Positions 1,384 through 27,413 of a stretch of DNA of 64,000 nucleotides are shown here, piece by piece. Position 1 is the first letter of the stretch. Each line of letters starts with the position of its first letter. Source of the stretch: Hyphococcus sp. (GTDB lineage: Bacteria; Pseudomonadota; Alphaproteobacteria; Caulobacterales; Parvularculaceae); assembly GCA_028284345.1 (NCBI GenBank), contig JANQRY010000008.1, positions 1 through 64,000 on the forward strand. Direction: 5' to 3'. The notes below the pieces were generated by a model. It was not told where the DNA came from, made no database searches, and saw only the letters and a program-made list of their open reading frames with translations. A program made the translations under genes and the position numbers.

Positions 1384-2379
1384 TCACGCAGACCCGGGCT
1401 TCGTCTCGCAAAGCGCCCGCTCCCACTCGATCGCCGTTTCAACAATGAAATCAAGATCGTCAAAGCGCGGGCGCCAGTCGAGAACGGTCCGGACCGCCGC
1501 ATTGTCGGCGATCAACTGGGCCGGATCGCCGGCCCGGCGGGCGGCGATTTCGTGCGGCAGCGGCGCGCCAGCGACGCGGGCAAACGCCTCCATCACTTCG
1601 TATACCGAATAGCCGCGCCCGTAGCCCACATTCAGCGTGGTCGAAGCGCCGCCTTCGCGCAGCCGTTTGAGCGCTTTTAAATGCGCCTGCGCAAGATCCG
1701 TAACATGCACATAATCGCGAATCGCCGTTCCGTCCGGGGTCGGATAATCGGCGCCGAAGACCTGTAATTTCTCCTTCCGAGCGCCGACCGCAATCTGCGC
1801 AGCGACCTTGACGAGATGCGTCGGCTTTCCGACTTCGCCCGCGCGCCCGTCCGGGTCCGCCCCGGCGACGTTGAAATAGCGCAGCGTCATATAAGAAAAG
1901 TCGTGAGCGGCGGCGGCGTCTTCGACGATGCGCTCGCTCATCGCCATGGAGGCGCCATAGGGCGTAATCGAGTGGATGGGCGCCTGTTCCGATATGGGCA
2001 CGCGGTCGGGCGTTCCGTAAACCGACGCCGTCGAAGAGAAAATGAAGCGCGGGATTTTCGCTTCGACGCAGGCGCATAACAGCATCAGCGTGTTCGCGGT
2101 GTTGTTCGTATAATAGGCGAGCGGATGGCGGATCGATTCCGGCACCAGGATCGAGCCCGCAAAATGAATGACTTCCCTGATGTCGTGCTCGGCGAAAACG
2201 CGCGCAAGGGCGGCGGCGTCCCCCACATCGGCCTCAACGAAAGTCGCGCCGTCCGGGACGAGGCTGCGCACGCCGGTGGACAGGTTATCGAGCGCAACCG
2301 CCTTCTCGCCGGCGTCCAGAAGCGCCAGCAGCATATGCGAGCCGATATACCCCGCTCCGCCGGTAACGAGCACGCTCAA
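1384..2379 (-). CDS. galE: UDP-glucose 4-epimerase-like NAD-dependent sugar epimerase
   Basis: This 331-residue extended short-chain dehydrogenase has the NAD-binding motif GGAGYIGS at residues 7-14, an FSSTASVYG strand with the conserved serines, and the GalE-type C-terminus with D-Y-x-H-V (IRDYVHVTDLAQAH). GalE interconverts UDP-glucose and UDP-galactose for surface polysaccharides. Unusually, the catalytic Tyr-x-x-x-Lys motif reads Y141-G-A-S-M145, so the lysine is replaced by methionine, and the usual L-K-A-V-G-E-S segment reads S-I-L-V-P-E-S. It starts with TTG behind GGGAG. It may be a working variant or a related epimerase with another substrate. Confidence 0.8.
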   Translation of the reverse strand: MSVLVTGGAGYIGSHMLLALLDAGEKAVALDNLSTGVRSLVPDGATFVEADVGDAAALARVFAEHDIREVIHFAGSILVPESIRHPLAYYTNNTANTLMLLCACVEAKIPRFIFSSTASVYGTPDRVPISEQAPIHSITPYGASMAMSERIVEDAAAAHDFSYMTLRYFNVAGADPDGRAGEVGKPTHLVKVAAQIAVGARKEKLQVFGADYPTPDGTAIRDYVHVTDLAQAHLKALKRLREGGASTTLNVGYGRGYSVYEVMEAFARVAGAPLPHEIAARRAGDPAQLIADNAAVRTVLDWRPRFDDLDFIVETAIEWERALCETKPGSA

Positions 2380-7708: not shown

Positions 7709-8704
7709 TTACTCCGCGGACTCCGGCTCCGTTCGCTCCGTGACGTCCAGCAACTCAACTTCGAAGATGAGCGCTTCGTTCGGTCCGATGGCGTCGCTGC
7801 CGCGCACGCCATAAGCGAGGTCGGGCGGAATGAAGAAGCGGTATTTGTCGCCAACGCTCATGAGCTGAACGCCTTCCGTCCATCCGTCAATAACCCGGTT
7901 CAGGGGGAACACGGCGGGCTGTCCGCGCGCAATGGATGAGTCAAACTCGGTTCCGTTGATAAGCGTGCCCACATAGTCGACCTTTACGACGTCGTCTTCA
8001 TCGGGGCTCGCGCCGCCATCCGCGCCTTCCGTTATCACCTGATACTGCAGACCGGATTGCGTTGTCTCAACGCCGTCTTTCTCGGCGTTTTCCGCGAGGA
8101 AATCCTGCGCGGCTTTCAGGTTGCGTTCCGGGCTTTGCACTTTGATCAGTTCAACATCGAAAATTAGGGCTTCGTTCGGTCCTATCGGACCGCCCGGCGT
8201 GCCGCGTTCGCCATAGGCCAGTTCCGGCGGCAGAAAGAACCGGAACTGATCACCCTCGCTCATCAGTTGAACGCCTTCAGTCCAGCCGGGAATGACTTGA
8301 TTGAGCGGGAACGTCGCCGCTGCGCCGCGGGCGCGCGAGGAATCAAATTCAACGCCGTCTTTGAGCGTGCCGACATAGTGAACCTGTACGAGGTCGGTGG
8401 AAACTGGCGTTGCGCCGTCCTCCGGACCTTCTTCAAGAACCATGTACTGGAGACCGCTGTCTGTCGTTGATACGCCGTCGCGCTTCGCGTTCTCTTCGAG
8501 AAACGCGAGCGACGCGGCGAGATTTTCAGCGGCGATTTTTTCCGATTCAGCACCGCTTGCCGCGTCCGCGTCTGTCGCGGTTTCTTCTTCCGCCGTTTCC
8601 GACGCAGCGTCTTCATCCAGCGTCGCGTCAGCATCACGCTGCCCGCAGGATGCGACAATCGCAGCGGCGCCGGCCGCCATTAAAATCCTCGAAAGCAAAA
8701 TCAT
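7709..8704 (-). CDS. Lipoprotein peptidyl-prolyl isomerase with two FKBP domains
   Basis: The 331-residue protein begins with a lipoprotein signal whose lipobox is VASC (Cys20), then an acidic linker rich in E, A and T. Two FKBP units follow, each with a Mip-like helical lead (AxxFLxENAxxDGV), VxVxYVGTLxxGxEFDSS, the active-site segment VIPGWTEGVQLM or VIDGWTEGVQLM, and FFxPPxLAYGxRG. FKBPs speed cis-trans proline isomerisation and help fold envelope proteins; the anchor places this one facing the periplasm. Mip and FkpA carry only one FKBP domain, so the tandem copy is unusual. AGGGAG precedes the ATG and a terminator follows. Confidence 0.93.
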   Translation of the reverse strand: MILLSRILMAAGAAAIVASCGQRDADATLDEDAASETAEEETATDADAASGAESEKIAAENLAASLAFLEENAKRDGVSTTDSGLQYMVLEEGPEDGATPVSTDLVQVHYVGTLKDGVEFDSSRARGAAATFPLNQVIPGWTEGVQLMSEGDQFRFFLPPELAYGERGTPGGPIGPNEALIFDVELIKVQSPERNLKAAQDFLAENAEKDGVETTQSGLQYQVITEGADGGASPDEDDVVKVDYVGTLINGTEFDSSIARGQPAVFPLNRVIDGWTEGVQLMSVGDKYRFFIPPDLAYGVRGSDAIGPNEALIFEVELLDVTERTEPESAE

Positions 8705-19989: not shown

Positions 19990-20304
19990 ATAGATTGCAC
20001 CAGAGCTTCAGGGGCCGGCGCCATCTACTTCTTCACCTACATTCTCGCGAGCCAGCGCAACGGCACGCTGTATACGGGGTCTACGGACGACCTGAGAAAG
20101 CGGGTGTGGGAACACAAGAACAAGGCCCTTCCGGGCTTCACCTCAAAATACGGCGTCGACCGACTGGTCTGGTTCGAAACCCACGACACGCGCGAAGGCG
20201 CGCTTACCCGCGAGCGGCGGATCAAGGAGTGGAAACGCGCGTGGAAGATCGAGATGATTGAAAGGGAAAACCCGGACTGGGCTGACCTCTACGACGGACT
20301 CTGA
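19987..20304 (+). CDS. GIY-YIG nuclease superfamily protein
   Basis: The conserved part has the GIY-YIG core written as YFFTYILAS and LYTGSTDDLRKRVWEHK, then the arginine and glutamate of GALTRERRIKEWKRAWKIEMIE, ending in NPDWADLY. This fits small stand-alone UPF0213/YhbQ-type proteins of about 90-100 residues, which are assumed to cut DNA; real substrates are unknown. No ATG precedes the domain; the TTG at 19987 at the end of the third repeat gives 105 residues, but the open frame continues upstream through the repeats. The repeat may thus have supplied the start. Confidence 0.85.
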   Translation: MIDCTRASGAGAIYFFTYILASQRNGTLYTGSTDDLRKRVWEHKNKALPGFTSKYGVDRLVWFETHDTREGALTRERRIKEWKRAWKIEMIERENPDWADLYDGL

Positions 20305-20355: not shown

Positions 20356-20448
20356 TCAGCGCCGGCTAAAGACCAGCCAGAACGCGGCGGCGCTGATTGC
20401 GCTATTGGCCGCGATGAAAAAGATCAGCAAAATCTCCACTAGCCCCAT
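20356..20448 (-). CDS. 30-residue single-helix membrane protein (twin A)
   Basis: This ORF of 30 codons has a good ribosome site (GGGGAGAGAACC) right before its ATG. The product begins MGLVEILLIFFIAANSA and ends with the positive FSRR, so it is one membrane helix with an outside N-terminus and inside basic tail. It shares the pattern MG-x-VE, a central F-x-x-x-N, I-x-AA and a basic end with the ORF at 21064-21162, 615 bases away on the same strand. No function is known. Confidence 0.6.
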   Translation of the reverse strand: MGLVEILLIFFIAANSAISAAAFWLVFSRR

Positions 20449-20605
20449 GGTTCTCTCCCCGACACGCAACATCGTGAGGAAACGCCGCCGGCGCGGCGGG
20501 AATAAGGCCCTTTCGGCGCGGTTTTTAGAAAACGCGTCGCGCCCTTCCCCTATGGGCGTCAAACAGGGTTATAGTCGGCTCCGTCAAAACGACAGGGGGC
20601 CAATC

Positions 20606-21025
20606 ATGAAACGCCGTCGCCACCCCTTCACCGCGCGAACGCGCAGCCTCACGCCGGCGCTGATCGCCGCGCTCGCTCTTGTCGCCTGCGGCGGCGACCC
20701 GTCGGCAAAGGAAGCGCGGAAGCTCGACGAGGCGGCGCTGTCGCCCGATGAGCGGTCGGTCGCCGAAGCGCTGATCGAGGGGTTCAAAACCGAAACCGGC
20801 GCGGCGAGCGTCAGCGAAGCGGAAATCGAACGGGCCGCCTGTTACGCCAGAGCCGTCGACATGCCCGAACAGTTTAGCGACGCGCACAAAAGTTACCTCG
20901 CCGACTACGCCGCCATCGACGAGGACTTTTATCCGTGGTTCGAGGCGCGCGGCGTTTCCATGGAAGACGCCTGGGACATCGCCGAACGGGTGAAAAAGGG
21001 TTTTGAAGCCTGCTCTGCAAGCTGA
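20606..21025 (+). CDS. Small putative lipoprotein of unknown function
   Basis: The 139-residue protein has a basic N-terminus, a hydrophobic stretch and the lipobox LVAC (ALALVACGGD, Cys about 28), so it should be lipid-anchored. The mature part is acidic and helical with two cysteines (RAACYARA and FEACSAS) that may form a disulfide in the periplasm. AGGGGGCC precedes the ATG. Two paralogous micro-membrane ORFs flank it on the opposite strand. I recognise no family. Confidence 0.7.
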   Translation: MKRRRHPFTARTRSLTPALIAALALVACGGDPSAKEARKLDEAALSPDERSVAEALIEGFKTETGAASVSEAEIERAACYARAVDMPEQFSDAHKSYLADYAAIDEDFYPWFEARGVSMEDAWDIAERVKKGFEACSAS

Positions 21026-21063
21026 ATTTATAAAGGACGCGCGCCCAAGGCGGCGTCGCTATC

Positions 21064-21162
21064 TTAGGCGTTCCGCCGCTTGCCCGTGAGGAACAGGCCC
21101 GCCGCGGCGATCACGGCGTTAAGGCCCAGAAACGCGACCAGCGTCATTTCAACAGCGCCCAT
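21064..21162 (-). CDS. 32-residue single-helix membrane protein (twin B)
   Basis: This ORF of 32 codons has GGAGAAACCTC before its ATG. The product begins MGAVEMTLVAFLGLNAV and ends GKRRNA. It is a single membrane helix with a basic C-terminus, related to the ORF at 20356-20448 by MG-x-VE, a phenylalanine and an asparagine at matching places, AA before the last hydrophobic segment, and a terminal RR. The pair flank a lipoprotein gene and are too small for standard gene callers. Confidence 0.6.
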   Translation of the reverse strand: MGAVEMTLVAFLGLNAVIAAAGLFLTGKRRNA

Positions 21163-21335
21163 GAGGTTTCTCCATTTCTTTCTTATCGTTGTCGCGAGCG
21201 CTCTCGGACGCGCTCGATTGCGGCGGAAATAAGACGCGTCTTCCCGTTTTTAAAGTCACAACCCGTTCACAACGGCGCGCGTATACGCTCACCGGACCGG
21301 CTCATGCGACAAGCCGCAATGGCGGAACCGACGGA

Positions 21336-24038: not shown

Positions 24039-24431
24039 CTATTTCGTGCCGGGCTCCGACGCCTTTAAGATCACGCGTCCGAGATCGCCGAACATCACAA
24101 ACACCCCGAGGGCGACGCCGCGATGGACCTGACCGGTAAATTCATATTGCTTCCACGCCCACAGGCCGGCGCCCGCGATAATCACAATTCGAGCGATAAT
24201 TGTGGCGCTGAAGTTCACCGTCTTAGCAGCGAGACGCCGTTTTCGCTGTTCGGGGCTCTCGTCGATCTGTCGCGGTCTGATCCTCGAGGGATCCGGTCGC
24301 AGTTCGCCACGGGGGTGCGGCGCAGAAACCGCGTCCGCCGTCGCTGCTGCAGGAGACGGCGACCCGGCTACCGCGGCGAGGCGATCAACGCTCGCCGCCG
24401 GGACCCCGGCTTTTTTCGCACCAAACGCCAT
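24039..24431 (-). CDS. Hypothetical membrane protein
   Basis: From ATG at 24431 the 130-residue product has a long disordered, proline- and alanine-rich N-terminus, a basic segment (SPEQRKRRLAAK), and a membrane helix at about 72-92 (FSATIIARIVIIAGAGLWAW), with a second weak one at about 101-118. It could be an anchored scaffolding or regulatory protein. GAGAGG lies 12 bases upstream. No family recognised; its neighbours give no hint. Confidence 0.55.
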   Translation of the reverse strand: MAFGAKKAGVPAASVDRLAAVAGSPSPAAATADAVSAPHPRGELRPDPSRIRPRQIDESPEQRKRRLAAKTVNFSATIIARIVIIAGAGLWAWKQYEFTGQVHRGVALGVFVMFGDLGRVILKASEPGTK

Positions 24432-24599: not shown

Positions 24600-27413
24600 T
24601 TAGAATGACTTTCGCACAGTCACGCCGTATGTCCGCGGCTCATTCGTGTATCCCGTGAAACTGTCGACCGTGCCGCCGGCCCAATCGGGGCGCGGGTCAG
24701 ACTGAGCAACAGACGGGAAGCCGCTGAGCAAGAAGTTGTCGTTGTTGAGATTGCGTCCCCAGACGCTGATCGCAAACCCGTTCTCCATTTCGTACCCGAC
24801 GCTGGCGTTGATCAGGCTCACGCGCCGGGAAGCGATTTCCGGCGGAATATTGTCGAGGGCCTGAACATCGCTTTCATACAGATACTCGATGCGCGCGAAC
24901 CCTTGAGCGCCGGACGCGAAATCGTGCGTGTATACCGCCGACGTCGAAATGCTGATCTCGTGAATGCCGGCGGGCGTTAGCCCGGAACCGTCAAAGAAAT
25001 CGGGGACAAAACCGGTGACCGGATCCGGCGCGCAGCCGGCCGGGCGGAAGCCGGCGAAAGACGTGCACGGCGCTTGCGTGAACACGTCATACTCCGGATC
25101 GAGATAGGTAAGGCCAAACGTAACCTGCAGCGGATCGATCGGGCTGTAGGCCGACTCAATTTCAAAACCGCGCACGGATTGTTCCTCAGCGTTCGCAAGG
25201 ACAAATCCGGTGCCGATAAAGAGATTTGACTGGAAATCCTCAATCGTCTGATCGAACAGGGCGATATTGATAAAACCACCGTCGAAATTCGCCTTCAGCC
25301 CGACTTCATAAAGCGTCACGTCTTCCGGGCGGGCCGTGCGGCCGAAACCGGTAGCGTCGGGGGGACGCGAGTCCGAAGACAGGTTGAAGGCGCCGGCTTT
25401 CCAACCGGTCGCATAGGTGAAGTACACGTTGATGCTGTCCGTCACGTCGTAAGCAATGCGCGCGGAATAGGTAACCTTGTCGTCCGTCAGCCGACCATTG
25501 TCGAGCGGATCGGCAGGATTGGGAAAGTTCACCTGCGGCTGGAAGAACTGGAACGGCGCGAGGGCCAAAGCGGAATTGCAAAGCAACGCCGGGCTCGGAA
25601 GATAGCAGTCCGCCGCAGCAATGGCGTTCGCAACGCTTCCAATCGTTTGCGGATCCGTCAGGATTGCGCCGCTTTGCGGATCGATCACGAAACCGCCCAT
25701 CAGCGCCGCGAGCGGCAGTGGCGTGGCGAGCGTCGCGTCAACAACAGCCGGGGGCGCCGTTAAAATATCGACTGCGCCGCTCGTCAGCGACAGTACCGCG
25801 CCGCGAAGCCCGATCAAATTCAGATCCACGTTGGAAATCGCATCGGTCAGCGTGCTGGTTCCGGTCGCGATTTTCCTGTCGTTAATGTAGGAAACGCCGC
25901 CGGAAATCGTCAGGCGATCCGTCACGTTGAAGTCGGCCTGCCCGAAGAACGAATAGGACCGGTTATCCAGCGTATAATCGCCGAAAACCCCGCCCCCCGG
26001 CGCGAAAAACGTGCCGAACGGCAGACCGAGACCGGTCGGCGGCGGCGCGGTTTCAAATCCGGTCAGCGCGACCGGCGATCCCGTCGCCAGGAAGGCAAGC
26101 GAGTCCGCAAAGGCGCGCGTATCGGGGCCCCAGATGATATCGCGTTGGAAGTCGACATTTTCGTCGAAGAAGTATCCGCCCACCAACCAGTCGAGACGAT
26201 TGTCGCCGGTCGATGCGATGCGAATTTCCTGCGTGAACGTTCCATAGGCGCGGGTTTGCGGATTTTCAATGGCGTCCAGCGAGGTGAAGTCGGCATCCGT
26301 GTTGGTGTTGTCGTCCTGTTCGCGATAGGACGTGATCGACGTAACCGCCGCAAATCCGATGTCCCAGTCCGCCTGTAACGAAATCCCCTTGCCGGTCAGT
26401 TGATTGGTCGGATCGAGATTATAGGTGACCTGACGACCGAACGGATCGCTGGCGTCGCCGATGACGGCGCCCAGACCAGGAATCGGGACCGATACGGTTG
26501 CGGCGTCAATTTGCGCCTGCGTGTATATGGGAACGCCGCCGACCAGGCTTCCCGGCGCCATGCCGCCAAGAATGATCGGGCTTACAATATCGACCACCGT
26601 GCCGGCGCCGATGACTTCGGTCGCCGGTCCGTTGAAGAGTTGCACCGCGCCGCAACACACTTCGTCAATCTTGTTGTATTCGCCGATGGCTCTAAACGAG
26701 AGCGTGTCTGTCGGCTCCCAGAGGAGTTGCGCGCGCGCAGACCAACGCGAGCGCTCATTGACTTTCGTTCCATTGACAATGTTGTCGTAGTAGCCTTCGC
26801 GCTCATTAATGCTGCCGGAGACGCGGAACGCCAGCGTATCGCTGAGGGGGCCGGTAAGAGTGCCTTTGAAGAGAACCTGATTAAAATTGCCGTAGGAGGC
26901 CTCAACGCTGCCGCCCCAATCGAAGTCGGGCGCTTTCGTCGTAATCGAGATGGCCCCGGCGGACACGTTTTTGCCGAACAGAGTCGATTGCGGCCCGCGC
27001 AGAACCTCGACCCGTTCCAGCGTCGGGAGATCAAGAATCGCCGCGGCGGAACGGGACCGGTAGACGCCGTCAATAAAGACGCCGACCGACCCTTCAATGC
27101 CCGGATTGTTGGCGCCGTTGCCGAAACCGCGGATCAGGAAATTCGTTTGCGACGAGTTTTGAAGCTGTGTCACGCGCAGCGACGGGACGGACGCCTGCAA
27201 GTCGAAAAGATCCTGAATGAAGGCTTTTTCAACGACGTCAGCGTCAACAACGCTGACGGCGACCGGCACTTCCTGAAGCGTTTGAGGGCGCTTCGTCGCC
27301 GTCACAATAATTTGGTCGGTTTGCGCCAGCGCGCCCCCGGCGGTTAGCGCGGCAATCGCCGCGCCCGAAAGCATGCTCTTAACAATCGCCGCGTTTTTCA
27401 GTGGAAATCTCAT
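24600..27413 (-). CDS. TonB-dependent outer-membrane receptor
   Basis: The 937-residue protein has a signal peptide (residues 1-30), a TonB box region (QIIVTATKR, about 34-42), a plug domain (LFDLQASVPSLRV, IRGFG, VEVLRGPQSTLFGKN) and a 22-strand barrel ending in aromatic F (VTVRKSF). Such receptors import scarce ligands such as siderophores, B12, glycans or aromatic compounds using TonB energy. The ligand is not predictable; the family resembles the large CirA/Fe-transport-like group abundant in Sphingomonads and Caulobacters. AAGGGG precedes the ATG, and a short 5' leader can pair with it. Confidence 0.93.
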   Translation of the reverse strand: MRFPLKNAAIVKSMLSGAAIAALTAGGALAQTDQIIVTATKRPQTLQEVPVAVSVVDADVVEKAFIQDLFDLQASVPSLRVTQLQNSSQTNFLIRGFGNGANNPGIEGSVGVFIDGVYRSRSAAAILDLPTLERVEVLRGPQSTLFGKNVSAGAISITTKAPDFDWGGSVEASYGNFNQVLFKGTLTGPLSDTLAFRVSGSINEREGYYDNIVNGTKVNERSRWSARAQLLWEPTDTLSFRAIGEYNKIDEVCCGAVQLFNGPATEVIGAGTVVDIVSPIILGGMAPGSLVGGVPIYTQAQIDAATVSVPIPGLGAVIGDASDPFGRQVTYNLDPTNQLTGKGISLQADWDIGFAAVTSITSYREQDDNTNTDADFTSLDAIENPQTRAYGTFTQEIRIASTGDNRLDWLVGGYFFDENVDFQRDIIWGPDTRAFADSLAFLATGSPVALTGFETAPPPTGLGLPFGTFFAPGGGVFGDYTLDNRSYSFFGQADFNVTDRLTISGGVSYINDRKIATGTSTLTDAISNVDLNLIGLRGAVLSLTSGAVDILTAPPAVVDATLATPLPLAALMGGFVIDPQSGAILTDPQTIGSVANAIAAADCYLPSPALLCNSALALAPFQFFQPQVNFPNPADPLDNGRLTDDKVTYSARIAYDVTDSINVYFTYATGWKAGAFNLSSDSRPPDATGFGRTARPEDVTLYEVGLKANFDGGFINIALFDQTIEDFQSNLFIGTGFVLANAEEQSVRGFEIESAYSPIDPLQVTFGLTYLDPEYDVFTQAPCTSFAGFRPAGCAPDPVTGFVPDFFDGSGLTPAGIHEISISTSAVYTHDFASGAQGFARIEYLYESDVQALDNIPPEIASRRVSLINASVGYEMENGFAISVWGRNLNNDNFLLSGFPSVAQSDPRPDWAGGTVDSFTGYTNEPRTYGVTVRKSF

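What the first reader, a model, noticed from the sequence alone, without database searches (positions are those of the whole stretch)
20356..21162. Twin 30/32-residue paralogous membrane proteins flanking a lipoprotein gene
Two tiny ORFs on the minus strand (20356-20448 and 21064-21162) each have a good Shine-Dalgarno and encode one helix with the shared plan MG-x-VE, F, N, AA and a basic end. They are alike in size and sequence but not in flanking DNA, which argues for selected coding. They flank a plus-strand lipoprotein gene. Micro-proteins of this kind often tune membrane complexes, and these match no family I know. The coding evidence and similarity are read from the sequence; function is inferred.
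Basis: partly seen in the sequence, partly recalled or inferred. Interest (0 to 1): 0.7.

Follow-up and report, generated by a model that had tools for sequence, protein, structure and literature searches.

The report
Genus-wide family of one-helix microproteins
Two tiny genes in this alphaproteobacterium are real members of an unnamed family of roughly 30-residue membrane proteins found in nearly all its close relatives, many of which keep extra copies behind a cyclic-AMP-type control site, suggesting small membrane helices used as a regulated stress or signalling output.

Summary
Both minus-strand ORFs (A, 20356-20448, 30 aa; B, 21064-21162, 32 aa) exist with Shine-Dalgarno sites, are mutually similar (0 of 20000 shuffles) and evolve as protein (dN/dS about 0.2 against G016). 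They belong to a family with no Pfam match, signature MGxxE..L..FI..N..LG..S, matched in 27 of 28 genus genomes and one neighbouring genus; outside these only weak matches. Conservation follows one helix face (permutation p 0.0016).

Nine genus genomes and one neighbour carry one to three copies between a CHASE2-cyclase gene and a Crp-type regulator gene; all 18 copies carried forward there have a Crp-type box. Nine more genus genomes carry a related copy with a similar box. Eighteen of 19 regulator-bearing genus genomes have a boxed copy; 0 of 9 others do.

The window copies are box-free; this class has a sigma-32-like promoter, weak in A and B, and the genome lacks that regulator. Best reading: induced one-helix subunits docking on an unknown membrane partner. 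Flanking a lipoprotein is local. Type I toxin is the main rival.

The parts
20356..20448 (-). ORF A, 30-aa single-helix microprotein
   Evidence: orthologues in G016 and G019; dN 0.17, dS 0.78 against G016
20453..20460 (-). Shine-Dalgarno of A (GGGGAGAG)
   Evidence: read
20493..20506 (-). promoter core of A, CTTATTCCCGCCGC
   Evidence: shared with B; family motif GCCcTATTTCCgCC
20606..21025 (+). lipoprotein-like gene between A and B (139 aa, no Pfam family); neighbour, not a demonstrated part of the system
21064..21162 (-). ORF B, 32-aa single-helix microprotein
   Evidence: orthologues in G016 and G019; dN 0.18, dS 0.90 against G016
21169..21174 (-). Shine-Dalgarno of B (TGGAGA)
   Evidence: read
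21220..21233 (-). promoter core of B, CTTATTTCCGCCGC
21249..21255 (-). -35-like CTTTAAA of B; relatives mostly have CCCTTGnA here
21256..21272 (-). direct repeat TTGTGAACGGGTTGTGA upstream of B; similar GTGA repeats seen by eye in many box-free promoters of the family; possible operator, regulator unknown
   Evidence: alignment; not tested statistically
24042..24428 (-). conserved 129-aa protein (c0), usual neighbour of the box-free class; match in 28 of 28 genus genomes
   Evidence: no Pfam family

Best explanation
A and B are genuine genes of a largely genus-restricted family of one-helix inner-membrane microproteins, each apparently made from its own short message. Shown by sequence: protein-level conservation, Shine-Dalgarno sites, a shared promoter core, one conserved helix face, and, in relatives, a Crp-type box at near-fixed spacing before the copies next to a CHASE2 cyclase and a Crp-type regulator. 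Inferred: the helix lies with N-end out and basic C-end in; it is induced from an alternative (heat-shock-like) promoter in the window class and by cyclic nucleotide plus the Crp-type regulator in the boxed classes; it works by packing its conserved face (E5, L8, F11, I12, N15, L18, G19, S22) against a membrane partner or against itself, changing that partner's activity under stress. The partner is not identified; the CHASE2 cyclase is a candidate for the boxed classes only.
For: Frames kept in G016 and G019. Window against G016: B has 2, 1, 12 changes at codon positions 1, 2, 3, with 11 of 13 changed codons synonymous; A is weaker, 9, 2, 8, with 7 of 16. All 150 finite pairs (of 171) among 19 28-aa copies have dN below dS. 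A profile of only the six A/B orthologues finds further genus members at E down to 1e-6. Conservation period 105 degrees, permutation p 0.0016. Promoter motif score 239 against 63-69 for three shuffles, in 32 copies without the strict box. The 18 copies picked out by the box are exactly the 18 carried-forward copies at the cyclase-Crp loci; box centre to -10-like hexamer is 28 bp in the 13 of 18 that the script matched. Perfect boxes genome-wide: 33 in ten such genomes, 18 directly before a family gene; 0 in five and 1 in one of six genomes without this regulator (my count). Cyclase orthologue at 66% identity or more, and regulator at 64% or more, only in the same ten of 62 genomes. A missing boxed copy in G006 was found where synteny predicted it.
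Against: No expression, localisation or binding data. The window genome lacks the Crp-type regulator (best hits 19-23% identity), so the regulatory argument concerns paralogues, not A and B. The -35 of A and B departs from the family consensus. The sigma-32 likeness rests on a consensus recalled from memory; the groES promoter of this genus is similar but also fits sigma-70. Upstream DNA of A and B is as conserved against G016 (0.80, 0.82) as the ORFs (0.77, 0.71). Helix-face conservation also fits self-association or a toxin.
Confidence: 0.6

Rival explanations
1. Type I toxin of a toxin-antitoxin pair, like Ldr or ZorO: a small hydrophobic, often duplicated peptide with a basic C-end whose translation is blocked by an antisense RNA.
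For: Size, one helix, basic C-end and tandem duplication fit the descriptions of LdrA/LdrD and of ZorO, which was found by searching for tandemly duplicated small hydrophobic proteins (passages of PMC8309996). The Shine-Dalgarno of A is less accessible than its null, 0.18 against 0.38.
Against: Over 48 of 50 copies Shine-Dalgarno accessibility averages 0.47 against 0.44 for the null, 24 of 48 below it; B is 0.60 against 0.42. With family copies masked, no complement longer than 13 nt lies within about 1 kb of any of 50 copies; 11 and 10 nt for A and B. Crp-type boxes and 18-of-19 co-occurrence with the regulator fit a regulated output better. Antisense transcripts over the gene itself cannot be seen from sequence.
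Confidence: 0.17
2. Structural small subunit of a constitutive membrane complex (as CydX or CcoQ are of oxidases, recalled), with stress-type promoters incidental.
For: One conserved helix face and near-universal presence in the genus.
Against: No large respiratory or transport complex was recognised among the recurring neighbours in the 38 loci laid out (only part of the neighbours were identified by Pfam). Matches per genome vary from 0 to 5 and promoters differ by class.
Confidence: 0.15
3. The message is the functional thing (dual-function or small RNA) and the peptide is secondary.
For: Short units with hairpin-forming leaders and, in boxed copies, strong 3' hairpins; upstream DNA of A and B is as conserved against G016 as the ORFs.
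Against: dN well below dS and, for B, a strong third-position bias; no consensus structure was predicted on the alignment of 18 boxed leaders.
Confidence: 0.05
4. Spurious ORFs in G+C-rich DNA.
For: Short length.
Against: Conservation of frame, start site and protein.
Confidence: 0.01

Closest known systems
YohP of Escherichia coli (27 aa)
   Same: Single-transmembrane microprotein associated with stress (abstracts of PMC7549839 and PMC12719787).
   Different: Sequences were not compared here; the abstracts describe no tandem copies or Crp-type box.
Ldr and ZorO type I toxins
   Same: Small hydrophobic helix, basic C-end; ZorO found as tandemly duplicated (PMC8309996 passages).
   Different: On average no hidden Shine-Dalgarno and no nearby complementary RNA gene seen; Crp-type box before the tandem class.
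Clr regulon of Sinorhizobium meliloti (adenylate cyclases, cAMP, Crp-type regulator)
   Same: cAMP-dependent Crp-family regulator controlling many proteins of unknown function (PMC5498481 passages); CHASE2 cyclases in that pathway (abstract start of PMC13001267, listing).
   Different: Clr box TGTT-N8-AACA differs from TGTGA-N6-TCACA; no tandem one-helix family in the passages seen.
VcdP of Vibrio cholerae (29 aa)
   Same: Microprotein whose gene is under Crp (abstract of PMC8672173).
   Different: Repressed by CRP; acts on citrate synthase; lies on a dual-function RNA.
Ecr small regulatory membrane protein (NF033861)
   Same: Near-match to A in NCBIfam, E 0.033.
   Different: 14 bits against a cut-off of 33; not a member.

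Membership tests
Type I toxin-antitoxin (Ldr/ZorO-like) | small hydrophobic peptide, one helix, basic end | tested here: met
   mean Kyte-Doolittle 2.1 over the core of 49 peptides; C-end net charge +1 or more in 48 of 49
Type I toxin-antitoxin (Ldr/ZorO-like) | separate nearby RNA gene with long complementarity to the toxin message | tested here: not met
   no complement above 13 nt in 50 copies with family copies masked; 11 nt for A, 10 nt for B; overlapping antisense and distant RNAs not testable
Type I toxin-antitoxin (Ldr/ZorO-like) | translation blocked by leader structure | tested here: inconclusive
   48 of 50 leaders scored, mean close to null; A alone is low
Type I toxin-antitoxin (Ldr/ZorO-like) | toxicity on overexpression | not testable with these tools
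   needs bench work
Ecr family (NF033861) | score over curated cut-off | tested here: not met
   14 bits against 33
LPXTG anchor (TIGR01167) | LPXTG motif of a sorting signal | tested here: not met
   B scores 19.1 over the 15.9 cut-off but its sequence has no LPXTG; generic helix plus basic tail
Crp-type regulated gene (boxed classes only) | TGTGA-N6-TCACA box at class II spacing (spacing rule recalled) | tested here: met
   binding not tested; the window copies do not have it

The most novel reading that the evidence does not exclude
CHASE2 cyclase, Crp-type regulator and an array of one-helix proteins form a dedicated signalling module whose main output is the array, with the helices feeding back on the membrane cyclase or remodelling the inner membrane. 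Sister genera appear to fill the same boxed slot with different small one-helix proteins, so the regulatory slot may outlive the protein that fills it; the window lineage lacks the module and keeps only box-free copies on a stress-type promoter.
Probability: 0.25. Interest if true: 0.75.

Novelty: new variant of a known kind. Interest (0 to 1): 0.57.

Why it matters
Functions of bacterial one-helix microproteins are mostly unknown. Here is a family with about 60 natural variants, a sharp helix-face signature, and in many relatives a precise regulatory address (Crp-type box, cyclase and regulator next door). That turns 'what do these tiny proteins do' into a direct genetic test: remove the array, raise cyclic nucleotide, and ask which membrane protein cross-links to the conserved face.

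Tried and rejected
Obligate partnership with the lipoprotein: rejected, since the arrangement was seen in three genomes only. c0 (the 130-aa neighbour) as obligate partner: weakened, since G031 has a family member but no c0 match at E 0.001. Crp-type control of A and B themselves: not supported in this genome. Conserved leader RNA: a hairpin is visible by eye in many of the 18 boxed leaders, but the consensus fold of their alignment predicted no pairs. Viral spread: one viral-contig scan gave 52 pattern matches and no relative. Not used: phage, plasmid and E. coli records, structure prediction, PADLOC, PDB searches, Rfam. In the first complementarity scan the null recorded anything under 9 nt as zero, so it is not a fair background; the long matches there came from the neighbouring family copy, and I repeated the scan with copies masked. 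In one search a first Fisher test used 17 of 19; G006 was then found and the count became 18 of 19.

Literature: listings (in one search, 12 of 27 papers shown, 8 of 18) gave no title or abstract describing this family; the library lacks most subscription journals.

Full report
WHAT IS THERE. They resemble one another far beyond composition: score 63, 0 of 20000 shuffles, maximum 51.

ARE THEY GENES. A search of 60 genomes (the window's own included) with the intervening lipoprotein matched, besides the window, five same-genus and two same-family genomes at E below 1e-3; three are strong (G016 70%, G019 61%, G013 49% identity). G016 and G019 carry both microproteins at the same places with Shine-Dalgarno sites; the G013 stretch does not. 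Against G016, dN and dS are 0.17 and 0.78 for A, 0.18 and 0.90 for B. By codon position B has 2, 1, 12 changes, 11 of 13 changed codons synonymous. A has 9, 2, 8, with 7 of 16 synonymous, so codon evidence from that pair is weaker for A; A against G019 has 7, 6, 14. Against G016, DNA identity is 0.77 and 0.71 in the ORFs, 0.80 and 0.82 in the 75 bases upstream, 0.44 and 0.49 in the 100 bases downstream (A and B in turn).

THE FAMILY. A profile of only the six A and B orthologues (A1) found matches at E 0.1 or better in 31 of 62 family genomes, many of them weak. A 28-row profile made from those hits (A4) gave 29 of 62 at E 0.02: 27 of 28 in the genus, G031 of a neighbouring genus (E 1.9e-11), and one weak match (G060, E 0.0019). 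As A4 was built hits, these counts are partly by construction. The missing genus genome, G001, has the neighbour gene c0, but its contig ends about 2.6 kb beyond it and no member lies there. In 299 order genomes (which include most of these) four further genomes gave only weak matches, E 0.003-0.012, three of them inside long frames; in 385 class genomes only the window genome matched at 1e-3. The number of candidates scored was capped, so weak members could be missed. Script 30 listed 57 candidate ORFs in 40 fetched stretches plus the window. Fifty were carried forward; dropped were five low-scoring ones (one of which, in L113, later looked like a true second copy of G014) and two members in L112 and L114. 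Of the 50, 46 start with ATG, 3 GTG, 1 TTG, and 48 have a motif from my Shine-Dalgarno list. Pfam gave no match; NCBIfam gave a sub-cut-off Ecr hit to A and a generic LPXTG-anchor hit to B, which has no LPXTG; PHROG hits were E 0.16 or worse. The six loci of named records come from metagenome assemblies, among them a Parvularcula sp., an uncultured Parvularculaceae bacterium and a Marinicaulis sp..

ONE FACE. Over 57 peptides (49 beginning MG, 8 of the V class described below) E5 is kept in 56, F11 in 57, L8 in 53, I12 in 52, N15 in 41, L18 in 45 and G19 in 45. Conservation has a 105-degree period, permutation p 0.0016. C-end net charge is +1 or more in 48 of 49. That pattern is expected of a helix packing on something; orientation is inferred from the positive-inside rule (recalled).

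CONTEXTS. Class S (box-free, including A and B) typically lies beside c0 and a TonB receptor: among the 38 loci laid out, c0 was recognised in 21 and the receptor in 17. c0 matches in 28 of 28 genus genomes. In the window c0 (24042-24428) and the receptor (24600-27413) are about 3 kb away, separated by bactofilin, PilZ-like and other genes. Class T lies between a CHASE2-cyclase gene and a Crp-type regulator gene (Pfam): nine genus genomes and G031, one to three copies, about 300 bp apart where tandem; in G025 the copies lie at two contig ends and in G008 and G031 there is one. Class V lies downstream of a second cyclase gene and an M48 peptidase gene, and 8-10 kb from a Crp-type gene in the six genomes where one contig spans both. 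Of two V-class cyclase stretches tested, both have the catalytic domain and one a CHASE2 match; both stretches are incomplete genes.

REGULATION. The T copies were first picked by their box; they turn out to be exactly the 18 carried-forward copies at the cyclase-Crp loci. The box is TGTGAC-N4-ATCACA in 17 and has AACACA in one, centred 79-92 bases before ATG; in the 13 where the script's pattern found the -10-like hexamer, its start is 28 bp from the box centre. That is near class II spacing for Crp (recalled). Perfect boxes are rare: 33 in ten T genomes, 18 directly before a family gene, against 0 in G000, G016, G014, G022, G002 and 1 in G015; the reversed-pattern control gave 1 in all 16 genomes (the 18 is my reading of coordinates and includes a copy cut by a contig end in G025). 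The other 15 were looked at: several precede ORFs that look like small exported proteins, others show no obvious target. V copies carry a TGTGC-N6-(T/G)CACA box in 8 of 9 genomes; G026 has a version two bases shorter. G006 first seemed to lack a V copy; the cyclase search then placed its cyclase, and the copy with its box was found at the place synteny predicted. In the genus 18 of 19 genomes with the regulator (E below 1e-30) have a T or V copy, and 0 of 9 without it; Fisher 1.4e-6, which ignores shared ancestry. G024 is the exception; its candidate has only a degenerate box.

CLASS S PROMOTERS. In the 32 copies without the strict box (two of them V copies), a motif GCCcTATTTCCgCC scores 239 against 63-69 for three mononucleotide-shuffled sets run with fewer starts. 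Anchored on it, 24 of 32 pass my threshold, with majority columns CC.TTG.A 21 to 14 bases upstream (17 to 22 of 24 each). This resembles sigma-32 promoters as I recall them. The groES promoter in seven genomes of the genus is similar and followed by what looks like a CIRCE repeat, but also fits sigma-70. A and B have weak -35 elements, so heat induction of these two is a guess.

SAME SLOT, OTHER PROTEINS. In three of seven stretches scanned from neighbouring genera with a roughly 50% identical regulator (G069, G030, G077), strict boxes stand 78-90 bases before other small ORFs with a hydrophobic stretch, two boxed ORFs each in G077 and G069. In G077 they lie about 5 kb from the regulator gene. 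They show no likeness to this family by eye; homology was not tested.

TOXIN TEST. Shine-Dalgarno accessibility averages 0.47 against 0.44 for the null, 24 of 48 below; A is low at 0.18, B is 0.60. With family copies masked, no complement longer than 13 nt lies within about 1 kb of any of 50 copies; 11 for A, 10 for B. This lowers, but does not exclude, a type I toxin.

VERDICT. A real, unnamed, largely genus-restricted family; a new variant of the known kind 'stress- or signal-induced one-helix microprotein'. The interest lies in the Crp-type boxed copies beside their cyclase and regulator, more than in the two window copies.

Noticed in passing
L134 3669-3839, 4096-4266, 4403-4579; L130 8871-9053 and about 8475-8660; L131 about 817-984: In sister genera, Crp-type boxes precede other small ORFs (about 55-61 aa) with a hydrophobic stretch, of different sequence from this family; the third L134 copy has no box at that spacing.
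   Followed up: partly
window 24042-24428 (-): 129-aa protein without Pfam family, matched in 28 of 28 genus genomes and next to a TonB receptor in many.
   Followed up: partly
L002 about 1968-2199 (-): In G016 a further hydrophobic ORF follows B and by eye appears to overlap its stop, suggesting translational coupling.
   Followed up: no
window 20020-20304 (+): GIY-YIG endonuclease-like ORF next to A, beside a stretch that looks repetitive by eye.
   Followed up: no
L164, L168, L170, L173: Crp-type boxes in four genomes precede ORFs of about 96-138 aa that look exported and, by eye, related.
   Followed up: no
L184, L186, L187: More distant relatives of the family with longer N-ends and an E-F-N signature.
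   Followed up: no
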